Position numbers and translations under genes: made by a program
Notes under the pieces: model-generated
Told to the model about the DNA's origin: nothing
The model's input: the letters and a program-made list of their open reading frames with translations, nothing else
Databases searched by the model: none
Shown: in pieces, positions 1-41,552 of the stretch
How the letters are laid out: each line of letters starts with the position of its first letter
Position numbering within the stretch: position 1 is the stretch's first letter
IMG/VR virus record: IMGVR_UViG_3300020020_000091
Coordinates: 1 to 41,596 of that record
Source: a virus
DNA length: 41,596 nt
Direction: 5' to 3' (one strand)

Positions 1-1260
1 GTGGCGACGGTGGGCGGCGTGGGTGCGTCGATTCCGCGCCAGACGGGGAAGACGTGGGACATCTTGGTCGTCGTGCTGATCTTGTGTCTGCTGTACCCGG
101 GCTATCAGGTCGTGTGGTCGGCGCATCATCTTCGGACTTCGACGCGGACGTTCCAGGTGCTGAAGGGACTGTGTCGCCGGCCGGGTGTCTCGATGGAGAT
201 CCGGCGGAACGGGATCCGGTCCGCGAATGGTGAGCAACAGGTCGAGTTCGCGAACGGTTCGATGATCATGTTCGGTGCGCGTTCGCGGGGCTTCGGTCGA
301 GGGTTCGAGCAGATCGACGCTGAGGTGTTCGACGAGGCGCAGATCATGGATGAGCGCGCGCTGGACGACATGGTCGCGGCGACGAACCAGTCGCAGCATC
401 CGTTCGGTGCGTTGATCGTGTTCGTGGGGACGCCGCCGCGTGAGGATGCGGGCGCGTCGGGCATCGTGTTCGAGACACGCCGGGCGAAGGCGCGCGCGGG
501 ACAGGCGCCGCGGGCGATCTGGCTGGAGATCGGCGCCGACCCGGGTTCGGATCCGGACGACCGCGAACAGTGGCCGAAGATGAACCCGAGCTACCCGACT
601 CGCACCTCGGCGGAGGCGCTGGAACGACTGCGCGAGATCTTGGACGATGAGGGCTGGAACCGCGAGGGTCGCGGGATCTGGGACGACCCTGTCATCGGCT
701 CGATCGTCTTCGGGAAGACGTGGAACGACTGCTTGGATCTCGCGCCGCCGGAGCCCGTGCTGCAGTGGCTGGGCATCGCGGTCGCGATCGACATGCAGGC
801 GGCGGCGATCGTGGCGCGTGGCGTGGACGCGAACGGGCGGCGCGTGCTGCGTCCGTTGGCGTACGGCACCGGGTTGGACTGGGTGCCGGCGCAGGCGGAA
901 CGACTCCTCGCGGAGTACGACGTGCCGGCGGTCGTGGACAGCAAGGGCCCGGCGGCGGTGCTGCTGCCGAAGCTCCGTGACGTCTTCGGGCATCGGCTGT
1001 ACGAGGCGGTCATGAACGATGTGCTCGACGCGGTCGCGGACTTCCGACAGGCGGTCGCCCTGCGGCGGATGTCGCATGCGGCCTACCCTGAACTGGATGC
1101 GGCGGTCGAGGTCGCCGTGCTGCGCGAGGTGGGCGACCGGTACGCCTGGGGACGGAAGAAGTCCGGTGGCGACATCTCGGCACTGGAGGCGGCGACGCTC
1201 GCGGACTGGGCGGCGGAGAACGTCAAGGCGCCGCGGAAGCCGAAGCCGGACATTTTCTAG
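1..1260 (+). CDS. Terminase large subunit, 5' end missing
   Basis: This is the ATP-driven DNA packaging motor and headful or cos nuclease, which docks on the portal. Visible in the sequence: a Walker A-type motif S-I-P-R-Q-T-G-K-T at residues 10-18, a Walker B-type V-F-D-E-A at 109-113 with D111 and E112, and an RNase H-like nuclease half with likely acidic residues D264 (I-D-M-Q), D313 (V-V-D-S-K) and D391 (G-G-D-I-S). In this family the Walker A motif normally lies some 50-80 residues from the N-terminus. Here it starts at residue 10, so the true start is probably upstream of the window and the GTG at position 1 is probably an internal valine. No small terminase gene is visible. The portal gene follows after one small gene, as expected. 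Family assignment is secure; the start is not. Confidence 0.93.
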   Translation: MATVGGVGASIPRQTGKTWDILVVVLILCLLYPGYQVVWSAHHLRTSTRTFQVLKGLCRRPGVSMEIRRNGIRSANGEQQVEFANGSMIMFGARSRGFGRGFEQIDAEVFDEAQIMDERALDDMVAATNQSQHPFGALIVFVGTPPREDAGASGIVFETRRAKARAGQAPRAIWLEIGADPGSDPDDREQWPKMNPSYPTRTSAEALERLREILDDEGWNREGRGIWDDPVIGSIVFGKTWNDCLDLAPPEPVLQWLGIAVAIDMQAAAIVARGVDANGRRVLRPLAYGTGLDWVPAQAERLLAEYDVPAVVDSKGPAAVLLPKLRDVFGHRLYEAVMNDVLDAVADFRQAVALRRMSHAAYPELDAAVEVAVLREVGDRYAWGRKKSGGDISALEAATLADWAAENVKAPRKPKPDIF

Positions 1261-25231: not shown

Positions 25232-26220
25232 TGAACGCACTCGAACTGCTGGAGAAGTACGCGGGCGCGTCAGATCGAGACCGCCGCGCGTGGCTGGCGG
25301 AACGCGACCGGGGCATCACGGCGACCCAGGTGCGAGATCTCCGACTGGGCAAGATCAGCACCCCTCGCCTCATATCGCTCAAACTGGGTTGGGAAGTCGA
25401 TACGTTCACCGGCAATGCGTTCACGGACTGGGGCAACCAGCGCGAGATCGTGATCGCCGCGCGACTGCGTGACGTGCTGAACATGCGACACGAGACGCGG
25501 GTTTTCCATGCGCCGGACGAACCGCGGTTCCTCGCGTCACCGGACGCTATGGGTGTGGACTTCGACGAGGCGCTGCGTATTGCCGAGATCAAGACGGCCG
25601 GCGAAGAGGACATCGGCCCCGGGTCCGAATTGTTCGCGCAATACGGCTACGACGCACAGGTGCAGTGGCAGATGCGCGTGACTGGCGCCGACTGGTGTCT
25701 GTTCGCCTGGGAGCAGCGACTCGTCGGCCCGCTGGGCGGGTTCGTACCCGGTCGTCTCCAGTGGGAGTGGGTGCAGCGCGACGAGGTCATGATCGCCGAG
25801 CTCGAGGAGTTGGCGCGCAACTTCCTCGCCGCTCTGGACGAGGCGGCGATGAGCGCGCATCCGGTGGACGAGAACGTGACCCGAGACGCGCAAGAGTACC
25901 TCGCTGCGCTGGGCATCGAGAGGGTTGTACGGGAGCGGAAGGAAGCGGCATATCGCCTGTTGCTGACCTCGGGTCGTTCCCAGGTGGCGGATGACATCCG
26001 AGTGACGTACACGCCGGGTCGGGTCGAGAAGCCGGGCGAGGTTGACGAGATCGACTACGCCCAGGCGGAGGCGGCCAACCCAGAACTGTTCGCAGAAATG
26101 CAGCGGATCTCGGAGGCCTGGGCGACGCACTGCGAGCAGTACACGAAGCATCTGCTGGTGCCGGGACATTCGTTCCCGGCACGGGTGACGGTGACCAAAC
26201 TAGGGAAGGAACGGGAATGA
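25231..26220 (+). CDS. YqaJ-like (lambda exonuclease family) nuclease
   Basis: A 329-residue protein. R-G-I-T-A-T-Q-V near residue 28, S-P-D-A-M-G with D105, and A-E-I-K-T-A with E119 and K121 match the PD-(D/E)xK core of phage YqaJ / lambda exo-type nucleases. Downstream Y-D-A-Q-V-Q-W-Q-M completes the family pattern. It resects 5' ends to create single strands for the annealing protein encoded next. The chosen ATG overlaps the previous stop. Confidence 0.88.
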   Translation: MNALELLEKYAGASDRDRRAWLAERDRGITATQVRDLRLGKISTPRLISLKLGWEVDTFTGNAFTDWGNQREIVIAARLRDVLNMRHETRVFHAPDEPRFLASPDAMGVDFDEALRIAEIKTAGEEDIGPGSELFAQYGYDAQVQWQMRVTGADWCLFAWEQRLVGPLGGFVPGRLQWEWVQRDEVMIAELEELARNFLAALDEAAMSAHPVDENVTRDAQEYLAALGIERVVRERKEAAYRLLLTSGRSQVADDIRVTYTPGRVEKPGEVDEIDYAQAEAANPELFAEMQRISEAWATHCEQYTKHLLVPGHSFPARVTVTKLGKERE

Positions 26221-27059
26221 CTGAGCCAGTTGAGACGGCGCTGCCGATCGAGGTAGTGAGCCATCCGAATCTCGCCGCGGCGCTCGCTGCGGTGCAGGCG
26301 GTGATCCCGCCGCTGCCGAAGACGACCACGGCCGAGGTGAAGAACCGCGAAGGCAAGTTCCTGTACTCGTACCAGTACGCGGATCTCGCGGATGTGACGC
26401 CGATGATCCTGCCGCTGCTGGGACGGAACGGTCTGGCGTTCACGGCACGACCGACGATGCACGAGACGTTCGGATTCGTGCTGCATTATTCGCTGGTCCA
26501 CGCGGACAGCGAGCAGACGATCGAGGGGTTCTACCCGCTCCGGGATTCGGACTCGCCGCAGGCGATCGGCGGGGCGATCACGTATGGGCGCCGCTACACG
26601 TTGTGTGCGGTCACGGGACTCGCTCCAGGTGGCGACGATGACGATGCAGCGGCGGCGACTGCGGAGGCGGCCGCATCGCCTCCGCAGGAGCGTCCCGTGC
26701 CGGCGGCGAACGTGCCGGTGGCGAAGACGAATTGGGCCGTGCAGATCTTGGACGCCAATACGATCGACGAACTGCGCGCGATCAGCAAGGATGTCGAGGC
26801 GAAGGAAGAGCTTGGGCATCGGTTCAACCCGCGGTTCGTCAAGCACTTCACGGCGATGCTGGCGCACTACGATCTCTCGGAGCCGCCCGCTGATGTCACT
26901 GTGGGCAAGGTGCTGGAGGTCGCGCGAGACGTGATGAAGGCGCGCACCCTGGCGGGGGCGGAGGTCGTCGATACGTCCGAACCTGTCGAGGGGCGGGTGT
27001 CCGATTGGGACTCTCGTGAGATCCCAGATGACAAGGCATCCCCACCGGAGGACGACTGA
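26217..27059 (+). CDS. ERF-type single-strand annealing protein
   Basis: A 280-residue protein. Residues about 15-145 show the ERF pattern: Y-Q-Y-A-D-L-A-D-V-T, L-P-L-L-G-R-N-G-L-A, A-I-G-G-A-I-T-Y-G-R-R-Y-T-L-C-A-V-T-G-L, then a G-G-D-D-D-D acidic stretch. It would anneal complementary single strands with the exonuclease just upstream (a Red-like pair). C-terminal region has helices (I-D-E-L-R-A-I-S-K-D) and an acidic end, as single-strand binding partners often do. The leader GGGAAGGAAC precedes the ATG. Confidence 0.87.
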   Translation: MTEPVETALPIEVVSHPNLAAALAAVQAVIPPLPKTTTAEVKNREGKFLYSYQYADLADVTPMILPLLGRNGLAFTARPTMHETFGFVLHYSLVHADSEQTIEGFYPLRDSDSPQAIGGAITYGRRYTLCAVTGLAPGGDDDDAAAATAEAAASPPQERPVPAANVPVAKTNWAVQILDANTIDELRAISKDVEAKEELGHRFNPRFVKHFTAMLAHYDLSEPPADVTVGKVLEVARDVMKARTLAGAEVVDTSEPVEGRVSDWDSREIPDDKASPPEDD

Positions 27060-30052: not shown

Positions 30053-30346
30053 GTGGTCATTATCACACATCGTTCTCCAGATGGACAAGACGGTCGGTCT
30101 AATCCAGATGGACAACAAGACCTAGCACCCCTCGAACCGCCGCAGCGCACGCCGCTGGAGCAGGCAGAGTTCGAGGGGTTCTGTCGTGGCTGGGATGCCT
30201 GCGCCGACTACCTCTGGCCGTTGCTGCAGCGCGCGGAGCACGACGCCGATATTTGGTACGCGCGCGCCACGCCTGGCGAAATGTTCCGCCGGATGGACGC
30301 GCACTTCCGCAACGAAGACACGCGATTCTTTGGGGGGTCACCGTGA
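30053..30346 (+). CDS. Small protein preceding the Mom-like gene
   Basis: A 97-residue protein starting at GTG. A short direct repeat near the start (CCAGATGGACAA twice) encodes P-D-G-Q units. The core has F-E-G-F-C-R-G-W-D-A-C-A-D-Y-L-W, a compact helical motif I have seen in other phage small proteins. Its end overlaps the Mom-like start by four bases, so the two are coupled. Unlike Mu, where the small zinc protein Com controls mom, this protein has no zinc-finger pattern. Confidence 0.62.
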   Translation: MVIITHRSPDGQDGRSNPDGQQDLAPLEPPQRTPLEQAEFEGFCRGWDACADYLWPLLQRAEHDADIWYARATPGEMFRRMDAHFRNEDTRFFGGSP

Positions 30347-31119
30347 GAGATCCGGAAGAGCTGGCGCTGTGGGACGTGGAAGATCTGTCCACCTTCCCAG
30401 CCGTGCGAGACATGACCGTGTCAGCCGTCGCGCACCGGGATGTCATCGAATTCTGCCGCCGCTACCACTACAGCAACACGGGAGGATCGAACCTCTGGAA
30501 CTGGGGGCTGTGGCACGGCGTCTACCTGCTCGGCGTCGTCTCGTACAACCTCCCCACCCGCAGCGTGTGTGATTCCATCTTCGGAGAGGATCACTGGGAC
30601 CACGTCTGGCATATGGGTCGTCTCGCCGTCGCTGACGAGGTACCGAAGAATGCGGAGTCGCGCCTGATCGGCGGATCCCTTCGGGCGATCGAGAAGCAGC
30701 ACCCCGGCACCTGGGCGATCGTGACCTACGCGGCCACCGACGTGGGCCACATCGGCTACGTCTACCAGGCGACGAATGCGCTCTACACGGGCACCGGCGG
30801 CGATCCAACCTGGTTCATCGATCAGGAGGGCCGCCGGCGGGGCCGCTATCTCTCAGGACACGTCAGCGACGCTCGCGCCGCATCGATGGGATGGGAGAAG
30901 CAGGCATCCGGTGGGCCGAAGCACCGCTACATCTACATACTCGGAAACAAGCGCGAGAGACGAGAACGCAGGGCGCTGCTCCGATTCCCGGTGCTCCCGT
31001 ATCCGAAACCCGTACAGCCGAAGGTGATGCGAGAGGCGCCCGATAGCAGCCGCCTCCACCTGGAGTCAGACACGACGTTCGACCAGGTCTCGCTCTGGGA
31101 GGACGACCCCACCGCATAG
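30343..31119 (+). CDS. Mom-like DNA-modification protein
   Basis: A 258-residue protein resembling Mu Mom and its phage relatives, which modify adenine to protect phage DNA from restriction. Supporting pattern: R-R-Y-H-Y-S near the N-terminus, then M-G-R-L-A-V, K-N-A-E-S-R-L-I-G-G-S-L-R-A-I, W-A-I-V-T-Y-A-A-T-D, and G-H-I-G-Y-V-Y-Q-A-T-N-A-L-Y-T-G. These are the Mom and GNAT-like blocks, including the Y-A-(x)-x-D...G-H-x-G-x-x-Y-Q-A motif. GTG start overlaps the upstream gene. Whether it makes acetamido-adenine or another modification cannot be told from sequence. Sits behind its own promoter. Confidence 0.82.
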   Translation: MRDPEELALWDVEDLSTFPAVRDMTVSAVAHRDVIEFCRRYHYSNTGGSNLWNWGLWHGVYLLGVVSYNLPTRSVCDSIFGEDHWDHVWHMGRLAVADEVPKNAESRLIGGSLRAIEKQHPGTWAIVTYAATDVGHIGYVYQATNALYTGTGGDPTWFIDQEGRRRGRYLSGHVSDARAASMGWEKQASGGPKHRYIYILGNKRERRERRALLRFPVLPYPKPVQPKVMREAPDSSRLHLESDTTFDQVSLWEDDPTA

Positions 31120-32452: not shown

Positions 32453-32596
32453 GATGTCTTCCCCTTTGCCTTCCCAGTAAGATCACAATACCATGTCTAA
32501 CTCAGATAATCTAGACTCAGATAGGAAGAAATCTAATCCAGTTCGTGTTAGAGTCAGTGCAGGGATCAACCCCTACAACTGGGAAGGACTGGGATC
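32453..32596. promoter_or_regulatory. Divergent, AT-rich control region
   Basis: The most AT-rich stretch noticed here, between leftward and rightward operons. It holds TCTAACTCAG (32496), TCTAGACTCAG (32510) and TCTAATCCAG (32532), with TAGAGT at 32549. CTCAGATA occurs twice, 15 bases apart. These look like promoters and operator sites, shared in part with 34225. A leftward -10 is possible around TATTGT on the minus strand. The rightward gene has a GGGAAGGACTGGG leader. Confidence 0.55.
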
Positions 32597-33616
32597 ATGA
32601 CTGATATCAGCAGCAGCTACGGCATCACTGAGAACACCACGCTGCTCGACGGATTCACCAACGCACGCGGCGGCACATGGGGCGACGGGGTCGGGTTCCC
32701 CGGCGCTGTTCCGCTCGAAGCGGTGCGCGAACTGATCGGCTGGGAGCCGATCGAGGCGCAGGTGCAAGGCGTCATCCGGGGCGAGAAGGGCCGCATGAAG
32801 GCCGTTGTCTCGGACCCGAACCGGAAGATGCTGGTCCACCCCCGCACCATGCAGCCGATCCAGATTCACGGCAAGGGCTACCAGGTCCACCCGTACGAAA
32901 AGACACTGGTGGCCAACGCGGCCACGATCACCGACAGCGATCTCGATGTGGCACGCGCCGGCACTCTGGACAACGGCGGCAAGGCGTTCGTCCAGTACGA
33001 ATTCCCGGAGAACATCCAGGCGGGCGCCGCGGGTGCCGAACCGGTCGTCTTCCGGCCGTTCCTGAACGCGGCGACTTCGCTCGACGGGTCGATGGCGACT
33101 TCGTACTTCCCGGGCACGGGCATCATCGTCTGCAAGAACACGATGGCTCGCGAACTGCGGAACGCGAAGCTTCAGGACACGCTGTACAAGATCCGCCACA
33201 CCCGCCACTCGCTCCTGCACCTGCAAGATGCACGCGAGGTCGTGGGCGTCGTGTTCGCCATCGCTGACGAATTCACCGCCGAGGTCGAGCGGCTGACCGG
33301 CCAGTACGTGAGCGACGAGGCGTGGCAGGCATTCCTCGACGAGACGGTGCCGCTGCCGAAGGATCAGGGTCACTCGCGGACGATCGCGGAGAACAAGCGC
33401 GGTTCGCTGCAGGTGCTCTGGGACACCGACGAGCGGGTGGCGCCGTGGAAGAACAGCAGCTGGGGTGTCCTCGCGGCGACGAACACTTGGATGAACAACA
33501 TCCAGACCGTCCGTGGCGCCTCGCGTGACGAGCGGAACGTCGCTCGACTGATCAACGGGACGTTCGAGAAGGCGGACGCTCTGACCCTCAAGGCCCTCGC
33601 GAAGGTGACCGCCTAG
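32597..33616 (+). CDS. DUF932-family protein
   Basis: A 339-residue protein of the DUF932 (phage/plasmid-like TIGR03299-type) family: W-G-D-G-V-G-F-P-G-A-V-P-L, V-V-S-D-P-N-R-K-M-L-V, Y-Q-V-H-P-Y-E-K, then I-R-H-T-R-H-S, and A-T-N-T-W at the C-terminus. Function of the family is unresolved; it is common in phages and mobile elements near replication or defence genes. It follows a divergent promoter and a GGGAAGGACTGGG leader. Confidence 0.8.
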   Translation: MTDISSSYGITENTTLLDGFTNARGGTWGDGVGFPGAVPLEAVRELIGWEPIEAQVQGVIRGEKGRMKAVVSDPNRKMLVHPRTMQPIQIHGKGYQVHPYEKTLVANAATITDSDLDVARAGTLDNGGKAFVQYEFPENIQAGAAGAEPVVFRPFLNAATSLDGSMATSYFPGTGIIVCKNTMARELRNAKLQDTLYKIRHTRHSLLHLQDAREVVGVVFAIADEFTAEVERLTGQYVSDEAWQAFLDETVPLPKDQGHSRTIAENKRGSLQVLWDTDERVAPWKNSSWGVLAATNTWMNNIQTVRGASRDERNVARLINGTFEKADALTLKALAKVTA

Positions 33617-33623
33617 TACGATC

Positions 33624-33646
33624 GGGGGCGGCGGATCGCCGCCCCC
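33624..33646 (+). terminator. Hairpin after the DUF932 gene
   Basis: GGGGGCGGC-GGATC-GCCGCCCCC is a perfect 9-bp stem that ends seven bases before a GGGAAGGATAGGAAA leader. No U-tract. Possible partial terminator or leader element of the next gene, as in hairpin-plus-start-motif pairs seen in other actinophages. Confidence 0.65.
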
Positions 33647-33652
33647 CTCAAT

Positions 33653-33667
33653 GGGAAGGATAGGAAA
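33653..33667 (+). promoter_or_regulatory. Start-associated leader motif, best copy
   Basis: GGGAAGGATAGGAAA immediately precedes the ATG at 33669. An identical 15-base copy lies at 34279-34293 before the ATG at 34296, and shorter versions precede many other genes. It contains a strong ribosome site but is longer than one needs to be, so an extra function is likely. Confidence 0.7.
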
Positions 33668-33668
33668 A

Positions 33669-34229
33669 ATGGCACGAGCAAAGTGGACCAACTCCAGCCG
33701 CAAGGAGCACTACTGCGGACGGGGTCACGAGATCCCCAAGGGCGAGGGGTACTACTCCGCCGCACCTGGGTACCGAGGTCGCACCGTCTACCGGTGCAAG
33801 AACCACCCGTTCCGCCCCTCCGAACTGACCACGTCGCTCCGATCGGAACCTCTCGCCGCGCTGGAGGCGCTGGAAGATGCGATGCCGCGCCTCGACGTGG
33901 GCGATTACGACAGCCTGCGCGAAGAGGTGGAGAGCTTCGCCCAGGCCGTCCGTGACTACGCGGACCAGCGACAGGAGGCGCTGGACCAGTGGGAGAACGG
34001 GAACTCCATGCTCGAAGATCTGCAGTACACCGCCGAGGCAGCGGCCGACGAGGCGGAGGACATCGCGCTGAACATCGAAGAGTTCGAGGGGGAGGAGCCT
34101 CAGCGCGAGAGCTTCGCCGATGTCCTCGAGTACGACGAGGCGGTGGAGGAGTGGGAGGAGGAGCGCCAGACTCACTGGGATGACGCGACTGCTGAGGTGC
34201 TCGACGCGGCGCAGGGGCTAGAATTCTAA
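33669..34229 (+). CDS. Cys/His zinc-motif protein with acidic coil
   Basis: A 186-residue protein. Residues 1-50 have K-E-H-Y-C-G-R-G-H-E-I-P-K-G-E-G-Y-Y-S and Y-R-C-K-N-H-P-F-R, a likely zinc-binding fold. Residues 60-186 are acidic and helical (E-A-L-E-A-L-E-D, D-Y-A-D-Q-R-Q-E-A-L-D-Q-W, E-E-W-E-E-E). Similar zinc-head and coil proteins occur beside DUF932 genes in actinophages. Function unknown. Confidence 0.68.
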   Translation: MARAKWTNSSRKEHYCGRGHEIPKGEGYYSAAPGYRGRTVYRCKNHPFRPSELTTSLRSEPLAALEALEDAMPRLDVGDYDSLREEVESFAQAVRDYADQRQEALDQWENGNSMLEDLQYTAEAAADEAEDIALNIEEFEGEEPQRESFADVLEYDEAVEEWEEERQTHWDDATAEVLDAAQGLEF

Positions 34230-34257: not shown

Positions 34258-34274
34258 GGGGCGCGAGGCGCCCC
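34258..34274 (+). terminator. Short hairpin before gene 34296
   Basis: GGGGCGC-GAG-GCGCCCC, a 7-bp stem. It stands just before a GGGAAGGATAGGAAA leader, the same arrangement as at 33624. Together these suggest a hairpin-plus-leader regulatory unit rather than a plain terminator. Confidence 0.55.
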
Positions 34275-34295
34275 ATCTGGGAAGGATAGGAAACC

Positions 34296-34760
34296 ATGTT
34301 CGAAGCGACGCAGGTAACGCACTTGCAGGACATCCCCGCCGAGGCGCTCAACTCTCGGCATCACCGGACCCCCGGAGCGGTCGGCCTCATTCTCGATCCC
34401 GTCGTGATCCGCGAGTACGTGCATTCTCAGTTGACCGACCACGAGTGCGAGTCGCCGGACGACCTTCGGCACTGTTCCAGCCTCCAGGTCGAACCCATGC
34501 TGCTGCTCCGCTCGCCGAAGGGCGAACTGGCCATCATCGGTTCCGAAGGGGTCGCTGACGAGGTCGACGAGAGCGAGGGCGCAGTGCCCGCGTATGTCTC
34601 GATCGGTTGGATGTATCAGCAGGTTGCACTGCCGCACGAGGTCATCCAACGGGCGATCACGGGCGAGGGCGCTGACGTGGCCGGGTTCGTGCGGCTGTTT
34701 GGTGACCGCCTGGACAATAACGCCTACCTGTGGCGCCAGTTCGTCGGCGTGAAAGGATAG
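34296..34760 (+). CDS. Hypothetical protein
   Basis: A 154-residue protein, mixed alpha-beta (M-F-E-A-T-Q-V-T-H-L-Q, L-R-S-P-K-G-E-L-A-I-I-G-S, S-I-G-W-M-Y-Q-Q-V-A-L-P). Carries the best copy of the start-associated leader. Not recognised. C-terminal L-F-G-D-R-L-D-N-N-A-Y-L-W-R may be a helix. Confidence 0.65.
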   Translation: MFEATQVTHLQDIPAEALNSRHHRTPGAVGLILDPVVIREYVHSQLTDHECESPDDLRHCSSLQVEPMLLLRSPKGELAIIGSEGVADEVDESEGAVPAYVSIGWMYQQVALPHEVIQRAITGEGADVAGFVRLFGDRLDNNAYLWRQFVGVKG

Positions 34761-34984: not shown

Positions 34985-34997
34985 CCACGGCACACGA

Positions 34998-35029
34998 CGC
35001 GCGGTCTCGGAGAAATCCGGGGCCGCGCG
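34998..35029 (+). terminator. Terminator-like hairpin
   Basis: CGCGCGG pairs with CCGCGCG, and CGG with CCG inside, around an AGAAAT loop. It separates the small-gene pair from the next gene, whose leader GGGGAAGGATGATAG follows within 25 bases. Confidence 0.65.
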
Positions 35030-35058
35030 TACTCTAGCGCCAAGGGGAAGGATGATAG

Positions 35059-35454
35059 ATGACGCTGCTCCCAGATCTCGATATTGCCGTCAGCGTGTCG
35101 CGCTGTGTGAAGGTCTGGACGAAGTCCGGGCAGATCGTGACCGGCTGCGCGAGATTCGGCCCTGCCGGGTTCGCCCTCTCGCTCGATGACGGCGGCTCGG
35201 TGATCGTCACCCAAGGAACTTGGGAGGACGGCAACGAGTGGATCCACGCCAGCATGGCCTGGCGCGATCACATGCCGACGTACGACGACGTAGCGACGTT
35301 GCACGAATCCGTCTTCGGGCGCCGGCGGACGAGCTACCAGGTGTTCGCCGCCCAGAGCCGGCATATCAACATTCACGAGTACGCGCTACATCTCTGGGGA
35401 CGAGTCGACGGGCGGATGGTCCTGCCCGACTTCGGCTTCGTGGGATTGATATGA
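35059..35454 (+). CDS. DUF7694-like hypothetical protein
   Basis: A 131-residue protein with W-E-D-G-N-E-W-I-H-A-S-M-A-W, R-D-H-M-P-T-Y-D-D-V-A-T-L-H, N-I-H-E-Y-A-L-H-L-W and L-P-D-F-G. The W-x-H-x-S, M-P-T and A-L-H-L-W pattern recalls DUF7694, a small phage family. Beta-rich. It is followed by an HNH gene, a common pairing. Role unknown. Confidence 0.65.
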   Translation: MTLLPDLDIAVSVSRCVKVWTKSGQIVTGCARFGPAGFALSLDDGGSVIVTQGTWEDGNEWIHASMAWRDHMPTYDDVATLHESVFGRRRTSYQVFAAQSRHINIHEYALHLWGRVDGRMVLPDFGFVGLI

Positions 35455-35834
35455 CCACGCCTGGCGCGTTCACCCGCGAGACGGTCGAGAAGATCTGGGA
35501 TCGCGACAGCGGCCGCTGCGTTCGCTGCGGTAGGCCCCAGCGGTTCGACCAACGCGGATCCGGCTGGTCGGTGCATCATCGGTGTCCGCGCGGGATGGGC
35601 GGCACGGCACGGGAATGGATCGCCGGCGCGGCCAACGGCATCGTGCTGTGCGGGACCGGATCGACGGGGTGCCACGGCTGGGTCGAGACACACCGAACAC
35701 GAGCGCTCGAAGACGGGATGCTGATCTCGGCGCACGGTACCTTGACGGCGGAAGACGTGCCGCTCTGGCACGCGCAACTCGGCTACGTGCGGCTGACGGA
35801 CCAGGGAACGACGACCGACGGGAGGCGACGATGA
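35451..35834 (+). CDS. HNH endonuclease
   Basis: A 127-residue protein: C-V-R-C-G, W-S-V-H-H-R-C-P-R-G-M-G-G, A-A-N-G-I-V-L-C-G and G-C-H-G-W-V-E. These give the C-x-x-C zinc site, the H-H and N and the final His of the HNH fold. It could nick DNA for mobility, recombination or packaging. ATG overlaps the previous gene stop. Confidence 0.83.
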   Translation: MTTPGAFTRETVEKIWDRDSGRCVRCGRPQRFDQRGSGWSVHHRCPRGMGGTAREWIAGAANGIVLCGTGSTGCHGWVETHRTRALEDGMLISAHGTLTAEDVPLWHAQLGYVRLTDQGTTTDGRRR

Positions 35835-36565
35835 AGCCGACGCTGCTGGATGTGATCGATGATCTCACCCTGCCGAAGAACGAACGGCTGGTGCAGGATG
35901 TGCTCGAGCCCGTACTGGATCCGGAGACGAAACAACCCCTGATCGATTGGGACGGGATCCCGCGCACTGTGAAGGTGGGGACTGTCAGAATTCCCGTGAC
36001 CGCGGATCCGCTGCTGTTGCAGTTGCGAGACGCGGTCACTGCATCGTTGGGAGGACTGGAGGGATCACGAGGCCGGGCGCACGAACAGATCCCGCTGGAC
36101 CCGGACGCGCTGGACCTTTACATCCATGTGACCTCGACGATCGTGCACTGGTGCATCGCGCATGATCTCCGCGTGACATGGAACCCGCTAAAGGATCTCC
36201 GATCGTGGTACGCGGCGACCCGAGCGGACAACCGGTTCGCCGAGGCGGTCTACCTAGAAATTGTGTCCGGGTGGGCGCGTCGGGTTCATGCGATGTTCGA
36301 CCGCTGGGACGAACAGGTGCTACTGGATCCGTGCCCACGATGCGGAGCGACGGAGTGGCGCGCGCCGAACGATCCGCTGGAGTATCAGGGGCGACCGCTG
36401 CCGGGTCGCCGATATCCGCTGCTGCTGCGATTCCATCGCAGCGACGGGGAGAACATGATCGAACGGGCTCGGGTGCACTGCCGGGCATGTGACCCAGAGG
36501 CGCGCCGCGCCTGGGGGCCACGCGAATTCCGCTACGAGGTTGAACACCGAATGGCCGAGGCATGA
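35831..36565 (+). CDS. Hypothetical protein with C-terminal zinc ribbon
   Basis: A 244-residue protein. N-terminal half helical (L-L-D-V-I-D-D-L-T-L, L-L-L-Q-L-R-D-A-V), central V-H-W-C-I-A-H-D-L-R and W-Y-A-A-T-R-A-D-N-R, then C-P-R-C-G-A-T-E-W and V-H-C-R-A-C-D, a split zinc ribbon. It resembles a family I have seen in actinophages next to HNH and DUF7694-type genes. Might bind nucleic acid. Overlaps the HNH gene by four bases. Confidence 0.66.
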   Translation: MKPTLLDVIDDLTLPKNERLVQDVLEPVLDPETKQPLIDWDGIPRTVKVGTVRIPVTADPLLLQLRDAVTASLGGLEGSRGRAHEQIPLDPDALDLYIHVTSTIVHWCIAHDLRVTWNPLKDLRSWYAATRADNRFAEAVYLEIVSGWARRVHAMFDRWDEQVLLDPCPRCGATEWRAPNDPLEYQGRPLPGRRYPLLLRFHRSDGENMIERARVHCRACDPEARRAWGPREFRYEVEHRMAEA

Positions 36566-36566
36566 A

Positions 36567-36596
36567 TTACAAGAGTGTGATTCAGTGCGGTACACT
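36567..36596 (+). promoter_or_regulatory. Promoter for a likely small RNA
   Basis: TTACAA (36567-36572), 18-base spacer, and TACACT (36591-36596) resemble a sigma70-type promoter. It begins just past the stop of the zinc-ribbon gene. The transcript would start near 36603 and run straight into three hairpins. Confidence 0.6.
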
Positions 36597-36603
36597 GAAC
36601 AGC

Positions 36604-36712
36604 TGCGGGGATTGTGTGAGCCCAAAACTCACTGCTTCGCGGGGGCCGGGTGGATTCTTTCCTATTCCTTCCCAAAAGGCCCGGCCCCCTTCCCTCGACC
36701 CCGCGGGGGTCT
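36604..36712 (+). ncRNA. Putative structured small RNA with anti-leader loop
   Basis: Three hairpins in about 108 bases: GTGAG/CTCAC (36616-36632), a perfect 10-bp GGGGGCCGGG/CCCGGCCCCC (36641-36650 with 36680-36689), and GACCCC/GGGGTC (36697-36711) followed by TTCGG. The 29-base loop of the second hairpin contains TTTCCTATTCCTTCCC (36658-36673). This is complementary, except for one extra base, to the GGGAAGGATAGGAAA leaders at 33653 and 34279. The RNA may pair with those leaders and block translation. It is predicted from sequence only; no transcript is known to me. The open frame at 36562-36765 overlaps it but lacks good coding features. Confidence 0.5.
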
Positions 36713-36764
36713 TCGGATGCCGTCTCAATGACGATTCGGCTAGCGTCCACCGGAGGTCCCCGTG

Positions 36765-36968
36765 ATGGACGGCTACGCAGAGAACGACGACGGCTTCCTG
36801 CGAGGTCCGGGCGGGCGCCAGAAACAGCGCTGGGACTTCGGCAGGGTCGTCTACAAACGACACATCTGCTACGACGAGATCGCACCCGGCGGACAGGTGG
36901 TGTGCTTCTGCCCGATCCGCGAGGACCACGACGTGGCAGCGTTCAACGATCTACCGAGAGTGAAGTGA
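36765..36968 (+). CDS. Small Cys-containing hypothetical protein
   Basis: A 67-residue protein with R-Q-K-Q-R-W-D-F-G-R-V-V-Y-K-R-H-I-C-Y-D and V-V-C-F-C-P-I-R-E-D-H. GGAGG precedes it. Possibly a zinc protein. It follows the likely small RNA. Confidence 0.6.
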   Translation: MDGYAENDDGFLRGPGGRQKQRWDFGRVVYKRHICYDEIAPGGQVVCFCPIREDHDVAAFNDLPRVK

Positions 36969-37745: not shown

Positions 37746-38183
37746 ATGGCTAACGCACTGTTCGACCCGGGACGGGAGGGCTTCCTTGCCGGGGAGATCG
37801 ACTGGGATACGGCGGTGATCAAGATCGCCCTGGTCCGCGCCTACACGTTCAGCGCAGCACACAAGTTCGTCTCTGACGTGACGGGTGCGAGCGGCGTGCT
37901 GCATGTGACTTCCAACGCGCTGGCGTCGAAGACCATCACGAACGGCGTAGCCGACGCTGCGGACGTTTCGGGCGGTGCGTTCGATGCCGTCGCTGCGAAC
38001 GGATCCAACCACTCCGTGCTGATCTTCCAGTCGTCGGCCGTGACGGGTGGCGGCGACGTGGCAGCGTCTGCCCAGCGCCTCATTGCCTGGCTCGACACGG
38101 GAACGAACTTCCCGATCGTACCCAACGGCGGCAACATCACGATCGCCTGGGACAGCGGAGCAAACCGGATCTTCAAGCTCTGA
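37746..38183 (+). CDS. Structural (minor tail-type) protein
   Basis: A 145-residue beta-rich protein: F-D-P-G-R-E-G-F-L-A-G-E-I-D-W-D-T-A, K-T-I-T-N-G-V-A-D-A-A-D-V, and S-V-L-I-F-Q. Short proteins with this 'R-E-x-F-L-x-G-x-I-D-W' start are familiar as tail-associated proteins in many actinophages and actinobacterial prophages. First gene of the second structural block. Confidence 0.7.
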   Translation: MANALFDPGREGFLAGEIDWDTAVIKIALVRAYTFSAAHKFVSDVTGASGVLHVTSNALASKTITNGVADAADVSGGAFDAVAANGSNHSVLIFQSSAVTGGGDVAASAQRLIAWLDTGTNFPIVPNGGNITIAWDSGANRIFKL

Positions 38184-38206: not shown

Positions 38207-40591
38207 ATGACGATCGCGCTGCGGGCTGCGGGTACGCCCACGGGCGCTGCCGACGCGGTCACGGCCGTCAACCCGGCCGTGCCTGCTGGCGCGGTCGTGG
38301 GTGATCTGTCCGTGCTCACGGTCGTCGCCAAGCCGTTCAGCACGACGATCACCACGCCGGCGAACTGGACGAAGATCGGCGAGCACACCAACGGAACCAC
38401 CGCGTCCGGTACCGACGTCGGCTCGACGAAGGTCGCGGTCTACGTGCGTGAGAACGCGCCGACCGGCGCGATCGGCGCGATCGGGCAGTCCGGTGCGAAC
38501 ACGATGGGCGCGGTCATCAACGTCTACTCCAAGACGAAGTCCTCGTGGGATTTCACGCAGTTCACGCAGGGTTTCGACGCCACGGTCGGCGCGAACTACT
38601 CGGCCACGGGTGACGCGGGGATCGCGGTCGCCGCCGGCGATTGGGTCGTCGCGTCCACCGCGATCAACGGCGACATCGGCACGGTCACCGTCCCGGATAT
38701 CGCGGGCATGTCCGGTGCGACCATCGGCACGGACGTACAGCGCACCAACTCCGCGGTGACCACCGGCAACGACTGCCGGACGCTGGTCAGTGACGCGCCG
38801 ATCACGGCGGGCTCCTCATCGGCCGCGCCGACGTTCGCGTACACCAACGCGTCGTCCACGTCGGGCACGACCATCTGGCTCCGGCTCCGTGAGGTCAACG
38901 CGTCGGTCGTGGTCCGGGAGATCTTCACCACGGGCGCGGACAACGACACCATCACGGCGGCGAACACGGGTTCCACGGCGGTCGTGCTCACCGGAGGTAC
39001 CGCCGTGATCGACACGGGGGTCGTCTGGAGCGCGACCCGAGCCGTACTGATGGACGGCACCTCGACGTCAGGCGGTGTCTACTGGCAGGTGAGCATCCCG
39101 CAGTCCGAGGTTCTGGCCGCGGATATCTACGTTCTGTATAACGCGCTGCCCAACACCCCCGAGCCGGCGATTCTCGGGTGGTACAACGGCGCGACGCGTC
39201 AAATCAGCCTGACCTGCGTGGACACTGGTCAGATCCGACTCCGTGACGGTGCCTCCACGAACATCTGGACCTCGACTGCGCAGATGGTCACGGGCCAGTG
39301 GTACCGGATCTCCTTGTACGCCACGCAGCACGCTTCGACCGGCACCGTCCGGGCGGCGATGTTCGAGGGCGCGTCCGCGACGCCGCTGGATGACTCGACG
39401 CTGCTCACGGGGCGGAACACCGGGGCGAGCCCGTACAACTCCCTCCGATTCGGGCTCAAGGGCGGCACCGGCACGAATACGGTGAACGGCAGCCTCGACG
39501 ACTACGCCTATGACCGTGGTGCGTCGGGTCTGATCCCGCCCGAGGCTCCTCCGCCGATCACGGCCACGCCGACCGCGATCGCCTCGGCTGAAGCGTTCGG
39601 CACTGCCGTCGCGAACGTCCAGATCACTGCCGCACCTGGGGGCATCGGCTCCGCTGAGGCATTCGGTACTCCGGTTGCGGGTGGGCTCCTCACGGCGACA
39701 CCAACCGCGATCGGAACAGCTGAGGCGTTCGGCACTCCAGAAGCGACGATCGCCGCTGGTGCGCCTGTTCCGACTGGGATTCCGTCAGCTGAGGCGCTCG
39801 GTACGCCGTCCATGTCCGGCCTCCTCACGGCGACGCCGACGGGGATCCCTTCGGCCGAGACATTCGGCACCGCCGTCGCCAACGTCCGGATCACCGCCAC
39901 ACCCAGCTCGATCGGAGCTGGGGAGACATTCGGGACACCCGCGGCCGGTTCGATCCTGACTGCCGTGCCGGCCGCGGTTCCTTCGGGAGAGGCATTCGGG
40001 TCACCCGTCGCAGGTGGACATCTAACGGTGTCACCAGCGGGTGTCGTATCAGGGGAACAGTTCGGTACCCCGAGCGCGGGTGGCCTCCTCGTGGCGACGC
40101 CTACCGGCATTCCAAGCGGAGAGGCTGTCGGTACGCCGCAGCTCGTCACTGCCGGGATCTCGACTCCCAACTCGATCCCATCGGCGGAGACGTTCGGCAC
40201 ACCAAGCGTCGCACTGGCCATCACGGCCACACCTGGAACCGTCGGATCTCTCGAAGCCTTCGGCAGCCCGGTTGTAAACGTCCAGATCACTGCTGCACCA
40301 ACCGGGATCGCCTCGGGCCAGGCGGTCGGTACCCCGACCGTGACCGGCATGCTCGTGGTCACCGTGGCTGGTATCCCATCCGCCGAGGCGTTCGGCGTTC
40401 CAGCGATGACCGTCAACATGGTCTACCTGCTGATCGGGGTCGCCTCCGCTGAGGCATTCGGCACTCCGATCATGACGATGCTCTACGACTTCGCCGTGAC
40501 CGGCGCGCGGCTGACCGTGTTCGACGCTGAACCGACGGCAGGATTCAAGGTTACCGGAGCAACACTCACCGACTGGAGGGCAGACGAATGA
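38207..40591 (+). CDS. Large repeat-rich tail or fibre protein
   Basis: A 794-residue protein. Residues 1-227 form an N-terminal beta domain (S-V-L-T-V-V-A-K-P-F, T-T-P-A-N-W-T-K-I-G). Residues 228-447 are LamG-like and paralogous to the start of the 15375 protein (N-I-W-T-S, W-Y-R-I-S-L-Y-A-T, L-L-T-G-R-N-T-G-A). Residues about 455-755 hold about 14 repeats of roughly 22 residues with S-A-E-A-F-G-T-P. The final 40 residues contain A-R-L-T-V-F-D-A. Likely a surface-exposed fibre or adhesin made late, despite lying far from the main tail genes. Confidence 0.8.
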   Translation: MTIALRAAGTPTGAADAVTAVNPAVPAGAVVGDLSVLTVVAKPFSTTITTPANWTKIGEHTNGTTASGTDVGSTKVAVYVRENAPTGAIGAIGQSGANTMGAVINVYSKTKSSWDFTQFTQGFDATVGANYSATGDAGIAVAAGDWVVASTAINGDIGTVTVPDIAGMSGATIGTDVQRTNSAVTTGNDCRTLVSDAPITAGSSSAAPTFAYTNASSTSGTTIWLRLREVNASVVVREIFTTGADNDTITAANTGSTAVVLTGGTAVIDTGVVWSATRAVLMDGTSTSGGVYWQVSIPQSEVLAADIYVLYNALPNTPEPAILGWYNGATRQISLTCVDTGQIRLRDGASTNIWTSTAQMVTGQWYRISLYATQHASTGTVRAAMFEGASATPLDDSTLLTGRNTGASPYNSLRFGLKGGTGTNTVNGSLDDYAYDRGASGLIPPEAPPPITATPTAIASAEAFGTAVANVQITAAPGGIGSAEAFGTPVAGGLLTATPTAIGTAEAFGTPEATIAAGAPVPTGIPSAEALGTPSMSGLLTATPTGIPSAETFGTAVANVRITATPSSIGAGETFGTPAAGSILTAVPAAVPSGEAFGSPVAGGHLTVSPAGVVSGEQFGTPSAGGLLVATPTGIPSGEAVGTPQLVTAGISTPNSIPSAETFGTPSVALAITATPGTVGSLEAFGSPVVNVQITAAPTGIASGQAVGTPTVTGMLVVTVAGIPSAEAFGVPAMTVNMVYLLIGVASAEAFGTPIMTMLYDFAVTGARLTVFDAEPTAGFKVTGATLTDWRADE
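39580..40466 (+). repeat. Tandem S-A-E-A-F-G-T-P repeats
   Basis: About 14 copies of a 66-base unit coding for I-x-S-A-E-A-F-G-T-P and a variable linker such as L-L-T-A-T-P-T-G. Repeats differ at third positions and linkers, so they are old. Their regular length suggests an extended stalk. Confidence 0.85.
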
Positions 40592-40905: not shown

Positions 40906-41148
40906 ATGCCGAAGCTGGCGCACAAGATCGAGGTAGTCCGAAGGGGTTACATCTTCACCCTGCTGATCGACGGAGCACAGTTCCCGTGGCTGATCTCAGA
41001 GTTCGGTGTCTCGACGACCGTGGACAACGGCGTGCCGACCGTGACCCTGAACCTGCCCGCTGAGATCGTCGTCGTGGACAACGAGCTCAGTCAGGACACG
41101 ATGACTGCACCTCCCAGCGGTTACCAAGAACCCCCCGGTGCACCATGA
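40906..41148 (+). CDS. Small protein before the HNH nuclease
   Basis: An 80-residue protein (K-L-A-H-K-I-E-V-V-R-R-G-Y-I-F-T-L-L-I-D-G, then T-V-T-L-N-L-P-A-E-I-V-V-V). GGGAAGGATGGAC precedes its ATG, and an in-frame ATG at 40900 is less well spaced. Its end overlaps the HNH start. Not recognised. Confidence 0.62.
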   Translation: MPKLAHKIEVVRRGYIFTLLIDGAQFPWLISEFGVSTTVDNGVPTVTLNLPAEIVVVDNELSQDTMTAPPSGYQEPPGAP

Positions 41149-41552
41149 CCACCACTGGCTCGACAACCGAACGCGGCTACGGAACAGCCCACCAGCGAGA
41201 GAGAGCCCGGTGGGAAAGGAAGCTGGCTGCTGGATATACCCACCCCTGTGCAAGATGTGGCATAGAGATCCGCCACGGAGACACCTGGGACCTCGGACAC
41301 ACCCCCGACCGCACTGGCTACACTGGACCGGAGCACGTCGCCTGCAACCGAGGACAACACACAGCACGAGACAAGACACAACAGCAAGCAGAGATCGTCA
41401 ACGGCATCTTGTTGCGTTCATGGTGGACACCAATAGCGATCATCGCTACAGCTGACTCCATCCCACCTCACCACACAGATCAGGACACGAACACACACGA
41501 CGAGACGACCCAGTATCACACCCTCCGATCCCCACGCCGCCGCACCACATAG
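41145..41552 (+). CDS. HNH endonuclease next to the genome end
   Basis: A 135-residue protein: C-A-R-C-G (zinc), D-T-W-D-L-G-H-T-P-D-R (catalytic His), and C-N-R-G-Q-H (N and H). HNH nucleases adjacent to the terminase are known to help packaging in several siphoviruses. Here the gene sits at the right edge, and terminase sits at the left, as expected if the sequence is the linear or circularised genome. The C-terminus is Thr/His-rich. Confidence 0.85.
   Translation: MTTTGSTTERGYGTAHQRERARWERKLAAGYTHPCARCGIEIRHGDTWDLGHTPDRTGYTGPEHVACNRGQHTARDKTQQQAEIVNGILLRSWWTPIAIIATADSIPPHHTDQDTNTHDETTQYHTLRSPRRRTT

What the first reader, a model, noticed from the sequence alone, without database searches (positions are those of the whole stretch)
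36604..36712. A likely small RNA whose loop is complementary to the phage's repeated start leader
Between two genes there is a promoter-like TTACAA-N18-TACACT, then three hairpins in about 108 bases. The middle one has a perfect 10-bp stem and a 29-base loop. The loop holds TTTCCTATTCCTTCCC (36658-36673). Its reverse complement, GGGAAGGAATAGGAAA, differs by one inserted base from the GGGAAGGATAGGAAA leader found just before the ATGs at 33669 and 34296. That gives 8 and 7 paired bases with one bulge. Shorter parts match many other leaders. This suggests an RNA that binds the ribosome sites of a set of phage genes, or a decoy of the 16S anti-Shine-Dalgarno region. I know of no described phage RNA of this kind. 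The minus strand reading could instead be a relic of a leader, but no start codon follows it there.
Basis: partly seen in the sequence, partly recalled or inferred. Interest (0 to 1): 0.92.

Follow-up and report, generated by a model that had tools for sequence, protein, structure and literature searches.

The report
Phage RNA loop mirrors early-gene leaders
At the start of its late genes this uncharacterised actinobacterial phage carries a stable RNA hairpin whose loop is the only copy in the genome of the complement of the ribosome-binding leader used by several of its early genes, and an unrelated group of mycobacteriophages shows the same arrangement with a different leader and a matching loop, so it may be a built-in off-switch for early genes.

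Summary
The loop at 36658-36673 lies in an 11-bp, nearly all-GC hairpin and is within one inserted base of the exact complement of the leader GGGAAGGATAGGAAA; no such copy arose in 1500 resampled sequences. GGGAAGGA occurs ten times on the + strand, six of them just before start codons, and once on the - strand: in this loop. The stretch is non-coding and sits at the early/late gene boundary, so it is probably a late promoter plus structured leader or small RNA.

No relative of the window was found, but an independent parallel was. Cluster K mycobacteriophages carry 'start-associated sequences' (SAS, GGGATAGGAGCCC), function unknown since 2011. In 11 of 24 SAS-bearing genomes there is exactly one reverse copy of the SAS core. 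It lies in a hairpin loop: nine in the region where late transcription reportedly starts, two (K5) in a different hairpin beside the terminase gene. A screen of 13,979 hairpins ranked two of these first and the window's next. Bifidobacterium prophages carry a covarying hairpin with a 16S-tail-like loop at a similar place.

Best reading: a late-expressed anti-leader RNA that blocks early-gene translation. Expression and function are untested, and several cluster K subclusters have SAS without the loop.

The parts
36567..36596 (+). promoter-like TTACAA-N18-TACACT
   Evidence: read from sequence; -10 resembles TAnnnT, -35 weak; not called by consensus scan; cluster K has TTTTAGACT at the comparable place
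36581..36599 (.). 7-bp perfect inverted repeat TTCAGTG-CGGTA-CACTGAA over the -10; possible operator
   Evidence: single copy in window; weak on its own
36605..36640 (+). hairpin 1 (inner GTGAG[CCCAAAA]CTCAC)
36641..36689 (+). hairpin 2, 11-bp stem (10 G-C), loop 36652-36678
36658..36673 (+). anti-leader segment TTTCCTATTCCTTCCC in loop 2; only - strand GGGAAGGA of the window
36697..36711 (+). hairpin 3 GACCCC-GCG-GGGGTC, terminator-like but without T-run
36702..36764 (+). alternative 15-bp helix 36702-36716/36750-36764 that would hide the SD of the first downstream gene; -34.5 versus -35.7 kcal/mol for the fold with hairpin 3
33653..33667 (+). leader GGGAAGGATAGGAAA of early gene 33669-34229; duplex with loop -24.7 kcal/mol
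34279..34293 (+). leader GGGAAGGATAGGAAA of early gene 34296-34760; duplex -25.3 kcal/mol
32580..32596 (+). related leader TGGGAAGGACTGGGATC of DUF932 gene 32597-33616; duplex -23.4
26203..26216 (+). related leader GGGAAGGAACGGGA of Erf-like annealing protein gene 26217-27059; duplex -23.1
35045..35058 (+). related leader GGGAAGGATGATAG of gene 35059-35454; duplex -17.2
35831..36565 (+). last gene before the element; DUF7341 / phrog_1467 family; genes with weak phrog_1467 matches precede a similar gap in Arthrobacter phage Sarge and Gordonia phage Moosehead
   Evidence: direct BLASTP not significant
36765..36968 (+). first downstream gene, 67 aa, unknown
38207..40591 (+). downstream minor tail protein (phrog_13352)
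41145..41552 (+). HNH endonuclease at the right end (phrog_1808)
1..1260 (+). terminase large subunit, open at the contig start

Best explanation
The stretch 36567-36712 is a promoter and structured leader or small RNA at the head of the late gene block. Hairpin 2 presents an anti-leader loop. When late transcription starts, the RNA accumulates and its loop pairs in trans with the special Shine-Dalgarno leader (GGGAAGGA followed by TAGGAAA or similar) of a set of early genes, blocking ribosome binding and switching those genes off. Shown: the complementarity, its uniqueness, the predicted stable hairpin, the non-coding character, the early/late position by gene content, and the same arrangement with a different leader/loop pair in cluster K phages. 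Inferred: that the promoter fires late, that the RNA is made, that pairing happens in cells, and that it represses.
For: Unique reverse copy within one edit, 0/1500 resamples; GGGAAGGA 10 (+) versus 1 (-). Loop versus 44 leaders: best three mean -24.5 kcal/mol, reached by 0 of 300 shuffled loops; 0 of 1500 random windows reach the best leader. Loop favours early over late leaders (p = 0.044), the 16S tail does not (p = 0.42). Frames through the stretch lack the codon-position GC pattern of real genes. Early genes lie before it, minor tail, HNH and terminase after it. Cluster K: one reverse SAS core per genome, in a hairpin loop, in 9 K1-type phages in the intergenic region corresponding to Adephagia 92-93, where late transcription is reported to start (PMC11373665), and in K5 phages Kratio and Omnicron in an unrelated 15-17-bp hairpin before terminase with a compensatory change. 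Screen of 13,979 hairpins: Anaya 15 leaders, SgtBeansprout 13, window 4; the reversed control gives at most 2.
Against: No transcript data. No relative of the window element in 50,697 phage records, IMG/VR or GTDB genomes at the sensitivity used, so its own conservation cannot be tested. Sampled K2, K3, K6 and K7 phages have SAS without a perfect anti-SAS loop, so the loop is not universal where the leader exists. K1 covariation is modest. Early/late preference is only p = 0.044 on gene starts that I chose by hand. Nested co-folding shows no preference for the predicted targets, although it cannot represent loop-to-linear pairing. Leader and loop differ by a bulge.
Confidence: 0.55

Rival explanations
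1. A cis-acting late-operon leader: the hairpins control read-through or translation of the first late genes (hairpin 3 competes with a helix that hides the ribosome site of gene 36765). The pyrimidine loop is incidental or serves a protein.
For: Position at the early/late boundary; two nearly equal structures, -35.7 and -34.5 kcal/mol; cluster K late leaders also have further conserved hairpins; structured gaps at the same place in Sarge and Moosehead without a clear anti-leader loop.
Against: Does not explain the unique near-perfect anti-leader loop or the same thing in K1 and K5; loop pairing with the next open frame is not special in any of 10 elements (fraction of random windows as good 0.055-0.67).
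Confidence: 0.25
2. A generic anti-Shine-Dalgarno loop (mimic of the 16S 3' tail) that titrates strong ribosome sites or binds a translation factor, without a specific phage regulon.
For: Bifidobacterium prophages and Propionibacterium phage B22 have hairpins with loop CTTTCCTCCTTTC / TTTACTCCTTTCC at a similar place; DarthP, Amgine, Unicorn and Krueger loops are pyrimidine-rich but not exact anti-SAS.
Against: In the window the loop is much better for the special leaders than shuffled loops are and prefers early genes where the 16S tail does not; B22 and Unicorn loops show no such specificity.
Confidence: 0.12
3. A chance match, or a relic of a leader on the minus strand.
For: Single genome; post hoc discovery; pyrimidine-rich hairpin loops are common in viral contigs.
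Against: 0/1500 resamples; located in one of the few very stable hairpins (about 220 loop bases of 41,596 on this strand); no start codon just after it on the minus strand; eight unrelated C/U-rich hairpins checked as controls gave no leader match of 10 nt and only isolated ones of 8-9; cluster K parallel.
Confidence: 0.08

Closest known systems
Start-associated sequences (SAS) of cluster K mycobacteriophages (Pope 2011, PMC3203893)
   Same: Repeated extended Shine-Dalgarno leader before many non-structural genes; one reverse-strand copy in several genomes; here shown to lie in a hairpin loop in the late region, as in the window
   Different: Consensus GGGATAGGAGCCC, not GGGAAGGATAGGAAA; 6-23 copies of the SAS core against 2 exact leaders (plus related ones); the authors did not interpret the reverse copy; no sequence homology with the window
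6C / B11 sRNA of Actinobacteria (PMC10470900; Mai 2019 cited there)
   Same: Hairpin loops rich in C pair with G-rich 5' UTR regions and repress; no Hfq or ProQ is identified in mycobacteria
   Different: Host-encoded, generic C-rich loops, host targets; no Rfam match for the window
c4 antisense RNA of phages P1/P7 and sar of P22 (reviewed in PMC12197685)
   Same: Phage RNA that pairs with a phage mRNA; c4 pairs around the ribosome site of ant, probably through looped segments, and blocks translation
   Different: Single target gene (ant); here a set of leaders and a late position are proposed
Lambda late leader / 6S RNA at pR' (own knowledge)
   Same: Short structured RNA made at the late promoter
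   Different: Linked to Q-dependent antitermination; no anti-leader loop known to me
Bifidobacterium prophage anti-SD hairpin
   Same: Very stable hairpin near HNH/terminase with anti-SD loop
   Different: Covariance model does not find the window element; loop matches the generic 16S tail

Membership tests
Cluster K SAS / anti-SAS system | 13-nt GGGATAGGAGCCC leader before start codons | tested here: not met
   window leaders are GGGAAGGATAGGAAA
Cluster K SAS / anti-SAS system | single reverse copy of the leader core, located in a hairpin loop | tested here: met
   window; cluster K
Cluster K SAS / anti-SAS system | position in the late promoter region | tested here: inconclusive
   gene order fits; late promoter use in the window not shown
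Bifidobacterium prophage hairpin (model R1) | match to the covariance model | tested here: not met
   no + strand hit at hairpin 2 with filters off
6C / B11 sRNA | match to the family in Rfam | tested here: not met
   no match at gathering score nor among E<=10 matches of the region
6C / B11 sRNA | loop pairs with ribosome-site region and represses | not testable with these tools
   pairing potential only
Phage antisense RNA of the c4 / sar kind | RNA segment complementary to a phage ribosome site | tested here: met
Phage antisense RNA of the c4 / sar kind | expressed RNA that blocks translation of the target | not testable with these tools
   no expression data
Small protein gene | coding pattern in an open frame | tested here: not met
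   codon-position GC 0.56/0.59/0.63 for 36562-36765 against about 0.7/0.42/0.82 for genes

The most novel reading that the evidence does not exclude
Diverse actinobacterial siphophages carry, in their late transcript, an RNA hairpin whose loop tracks the phage's own repeated early-gene leader (window: GGGAAGGATAGGAAA; cluster K1/K5: GGGATAGGAG) and acts as a regulon-wide early-to-late translational switch, which would help to explain why SAS leaders are conserved beyond the Shine-Dalgarno core.
Probability: 0.4. Interest if true: 0.9.

Novelty: new variant of a known kind. Interest (0 to 1): 0.78.

Why it matters
SAS leaders have been an open question since 2011: Pope and colleagues asked whether they bind an RNA or a protein. 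A dedicated anti-SAS RNA loop in the late region gives a direct, testable answer, with cultured phages available (Adephagia, CrimD, Kratio). If true, phages would run a temporal switch by RNA pairing with a whole set of leaders at once, instead of with one target gene, in hosts for which no Hfq-like chaperone is established.

Tried and rejected
No relative by DNA or protein of the element or its neighbours. The 37746 protein led to 47 loci, but none is syntenic. Exact loop scan of IMG/VR: 11 hits, all low-GC chance. GC-stem pattern scan: mostly chance hairpins, useful as controls. Rfam: nothing but tRNAs. Cis pairing of the loop with the next start: not special. B22 and Unicorn loops: no leader specificity. 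Left ends of other K subclusters: no anti-SAS. Co-folding: not informative for loop pairing. Coding reading: rejected. Membership in the Bifidobacterium hairpin model: rejected.

Full report
1. The observation. The sequence is as described. A promoter-like TTACAA-N18-TACACT lies at 36567-36596, followed by three hairpins up to 36711. The RNA folds at -51.8 kcal/mol, z -2.1, and the middle hairpin alone at -28.5, z -2.5. Its stem has 11 pairs, 10 of them G-C, and is one of few hairpins of that strength in the window. The loop segment 36658-36673 is the complement, with one extra base, of GGGAAGGATAGGAAA, which occurs exactly at 33653 and 34279. Within one edit, the reverse strand of the whole window has only this copy; 1500 resampled sequences have none. 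The core GGGAAGGA is present ten times on the + strand, six of them within 22 nt upstream of called starts, and once on the - strand: in this loop. Weak points: the -35 is poor and the site is not called by the scan, and hairpin 3 lacks a T-run.

2. Surroundings. The stretch is not coding. Genes before it are early-type (RecE-like, Erf-like, Mom-like, DUF932, HNH). After it come small genes, a minor tail protein and an HNH endonuclease, and the contig begins in terminase. The gene just before it belongs to the DUF7341/phrog_1467 group; genes with weak phrog_1467 matches precede a similar structured gap in Arthrobacter phage Sarge and Gordonia phage Moosehead, although direct pairwise BLASTP is not significant. 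By gene order it is therefore the head of the late block (inference). The record is a viral contig without close relatives.

3. Does the loop fit leaders specifically? Against 44 leaders, the best are 34296 (-25.3), 33669 (-24.7), 32597 (-23.4) and 26217 (-23.1 kcal/mol). None of 300 composition-preserving shuffles of the loop reaches the mean of the best three, and none of 1500 random windows reaches the best. All four are early genes. Overall the loop prefers early leaders (p = 0.044), whereas the 16S tail sequence does not (p = 0.42). The start list was made by hand, so this last test is soft.

4. Independent parallel. Cluster K mycobacteriophages have the SAS leader GGGATAGGAGCCC, whose role is undetermined; Pope et al. 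noted rare sites in the opposite orientation without interpreting them. In Anaya the reverse copy lies in the 96-97 intergenic region as GCGCGG[CCTCCTATCC]CCGCGC. Whole-record counts of GGGATAGGAG in 25 genomes: 24 have it forward; 11 of these have exactly one reverse copy. Nine of the 11 are K1-type, with the loop CCTCCTATCCCC unchanged while the stem varies (on an alignment that also includes DarthP and Amgine 92.5% of cells pair against 34-46% in slid controls, but only three pairs have changes on both sides). By gene order this is the Adephagia 92-93 region, where late transcription was reported to begin (PMC11373665). The other two, Kratio and Omnicron, carry it in a different 15-17-bp hairpin between tRNA-Trp and terminase (annotated in Kratio), with a compensatory change. 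The same loop in two unrelated hairpins at two places argues for selection on the loop. DarthP, Amgine, Unicorn and Krueger have pyrimidine loops at the same place that are not exact anti-SAS; the remaining sampled phages have none.

5. Screen. In 139 terminase-linked or otherwise collected loci and the window, 13,979 hairpins were tested for loop 9-mers complementary to SD-like leaders. Anaya (15 leaders) and SgtBeansprout (13), both included as known positives, rank first, the window (4) next, then a Bifidobacterium cuniculi prophage (3). The reversed-sequence control gives at most 2. Total counts were similar for real and control (53 against 41), so the signal is in these top cases only.

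6. A related generic class. Six Bifidobacterium prophages share a hairpin about 1-2 kb upstream of terminase, in several just before an HNH-like gene, with covarying stems (97.1% paired, 0/500 shuffles) and loop CTTT[C/A]CTCCTTTC, like the 16S 3' tail; Propionibacterium phage B22 and L283 have a similar one. The model finds 9 of 112 genomes of the genus but not the window, so the window is not a member.

7. Mechanism. Most likely the late transcript, or a short RNA from it, offers the loop to early-gene leaders and blocks their translation. In cis, the loop does not fit the next gene. A separate cis switch at hairpin 3 is possible: a 15-bp helix covering the ribosome site of gene 36765 is within 1.2 kcal/mol of the other fold. 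Known precedents for the chemistry are B11/6C loops on 5' UTRs and c4 RNA of P1/P7.

8. Limits. There is no expression evidence for the window and no relatives to test its own conservation. SAS exists without the loop in several subclusters, so the loop would be an optional layer. Co-folding neither supports nor tests loop pairing. The literature library holds open papers only; I found no report of an anti-SAS or anti-leader RNA in it, which does not prove that none exists.

Noticed in passing
L300:8963-9007, L305:9073-9117, L306:8152-8196, L308:8736-8779, L322:8973-9017, L324:8973-9016 (Bifidobacterium prophages); L088:36425-36473: Covarying hairpin with a loop like the 16S 3' tail (CTTTCCTCCTTTC) upstream of terminase; no Rfam match in L300 and L305; found in 9 of 112 genomes of the genus
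   Followed up: partly
L359:370-450, L360:380-460 (Kratio, Omnicron left ends): Anti-SAS hairpin located just before terminase instead of in the right-end leader; it overlaps annotated Kratio gene 4, whose start may be further downstream
   Followed up: partly
L064, L073, L074, L082 late leaders: Unicorn, DarthP, Amgine and Krueger have CTCCCTTCCC-like loops at the site of the K1 anti-SAS loop although SAS itself is unchanged
   Followed up: partly
window 36702-36764: Two nearly equal folds, one hiding the ribosome site of gene 36765: a possible switch
   Followed up: partly
window 33624-33647, 34258-34276, 34997-35030: Strong GC hairpins immediately upstream of the GGGAAGGA leaders of 33669, 34296 and 35059
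   Followed up: no
window 30253-31119: Mom-like DNA modification protein (phrog_1384)
   Followed up: no
window 37746-38183: Small protein (phrog_644) with relatives 42-85% identical in 47 viral contigs that are otherwise not syntenic; probably a mobile module
   Followed up: partly
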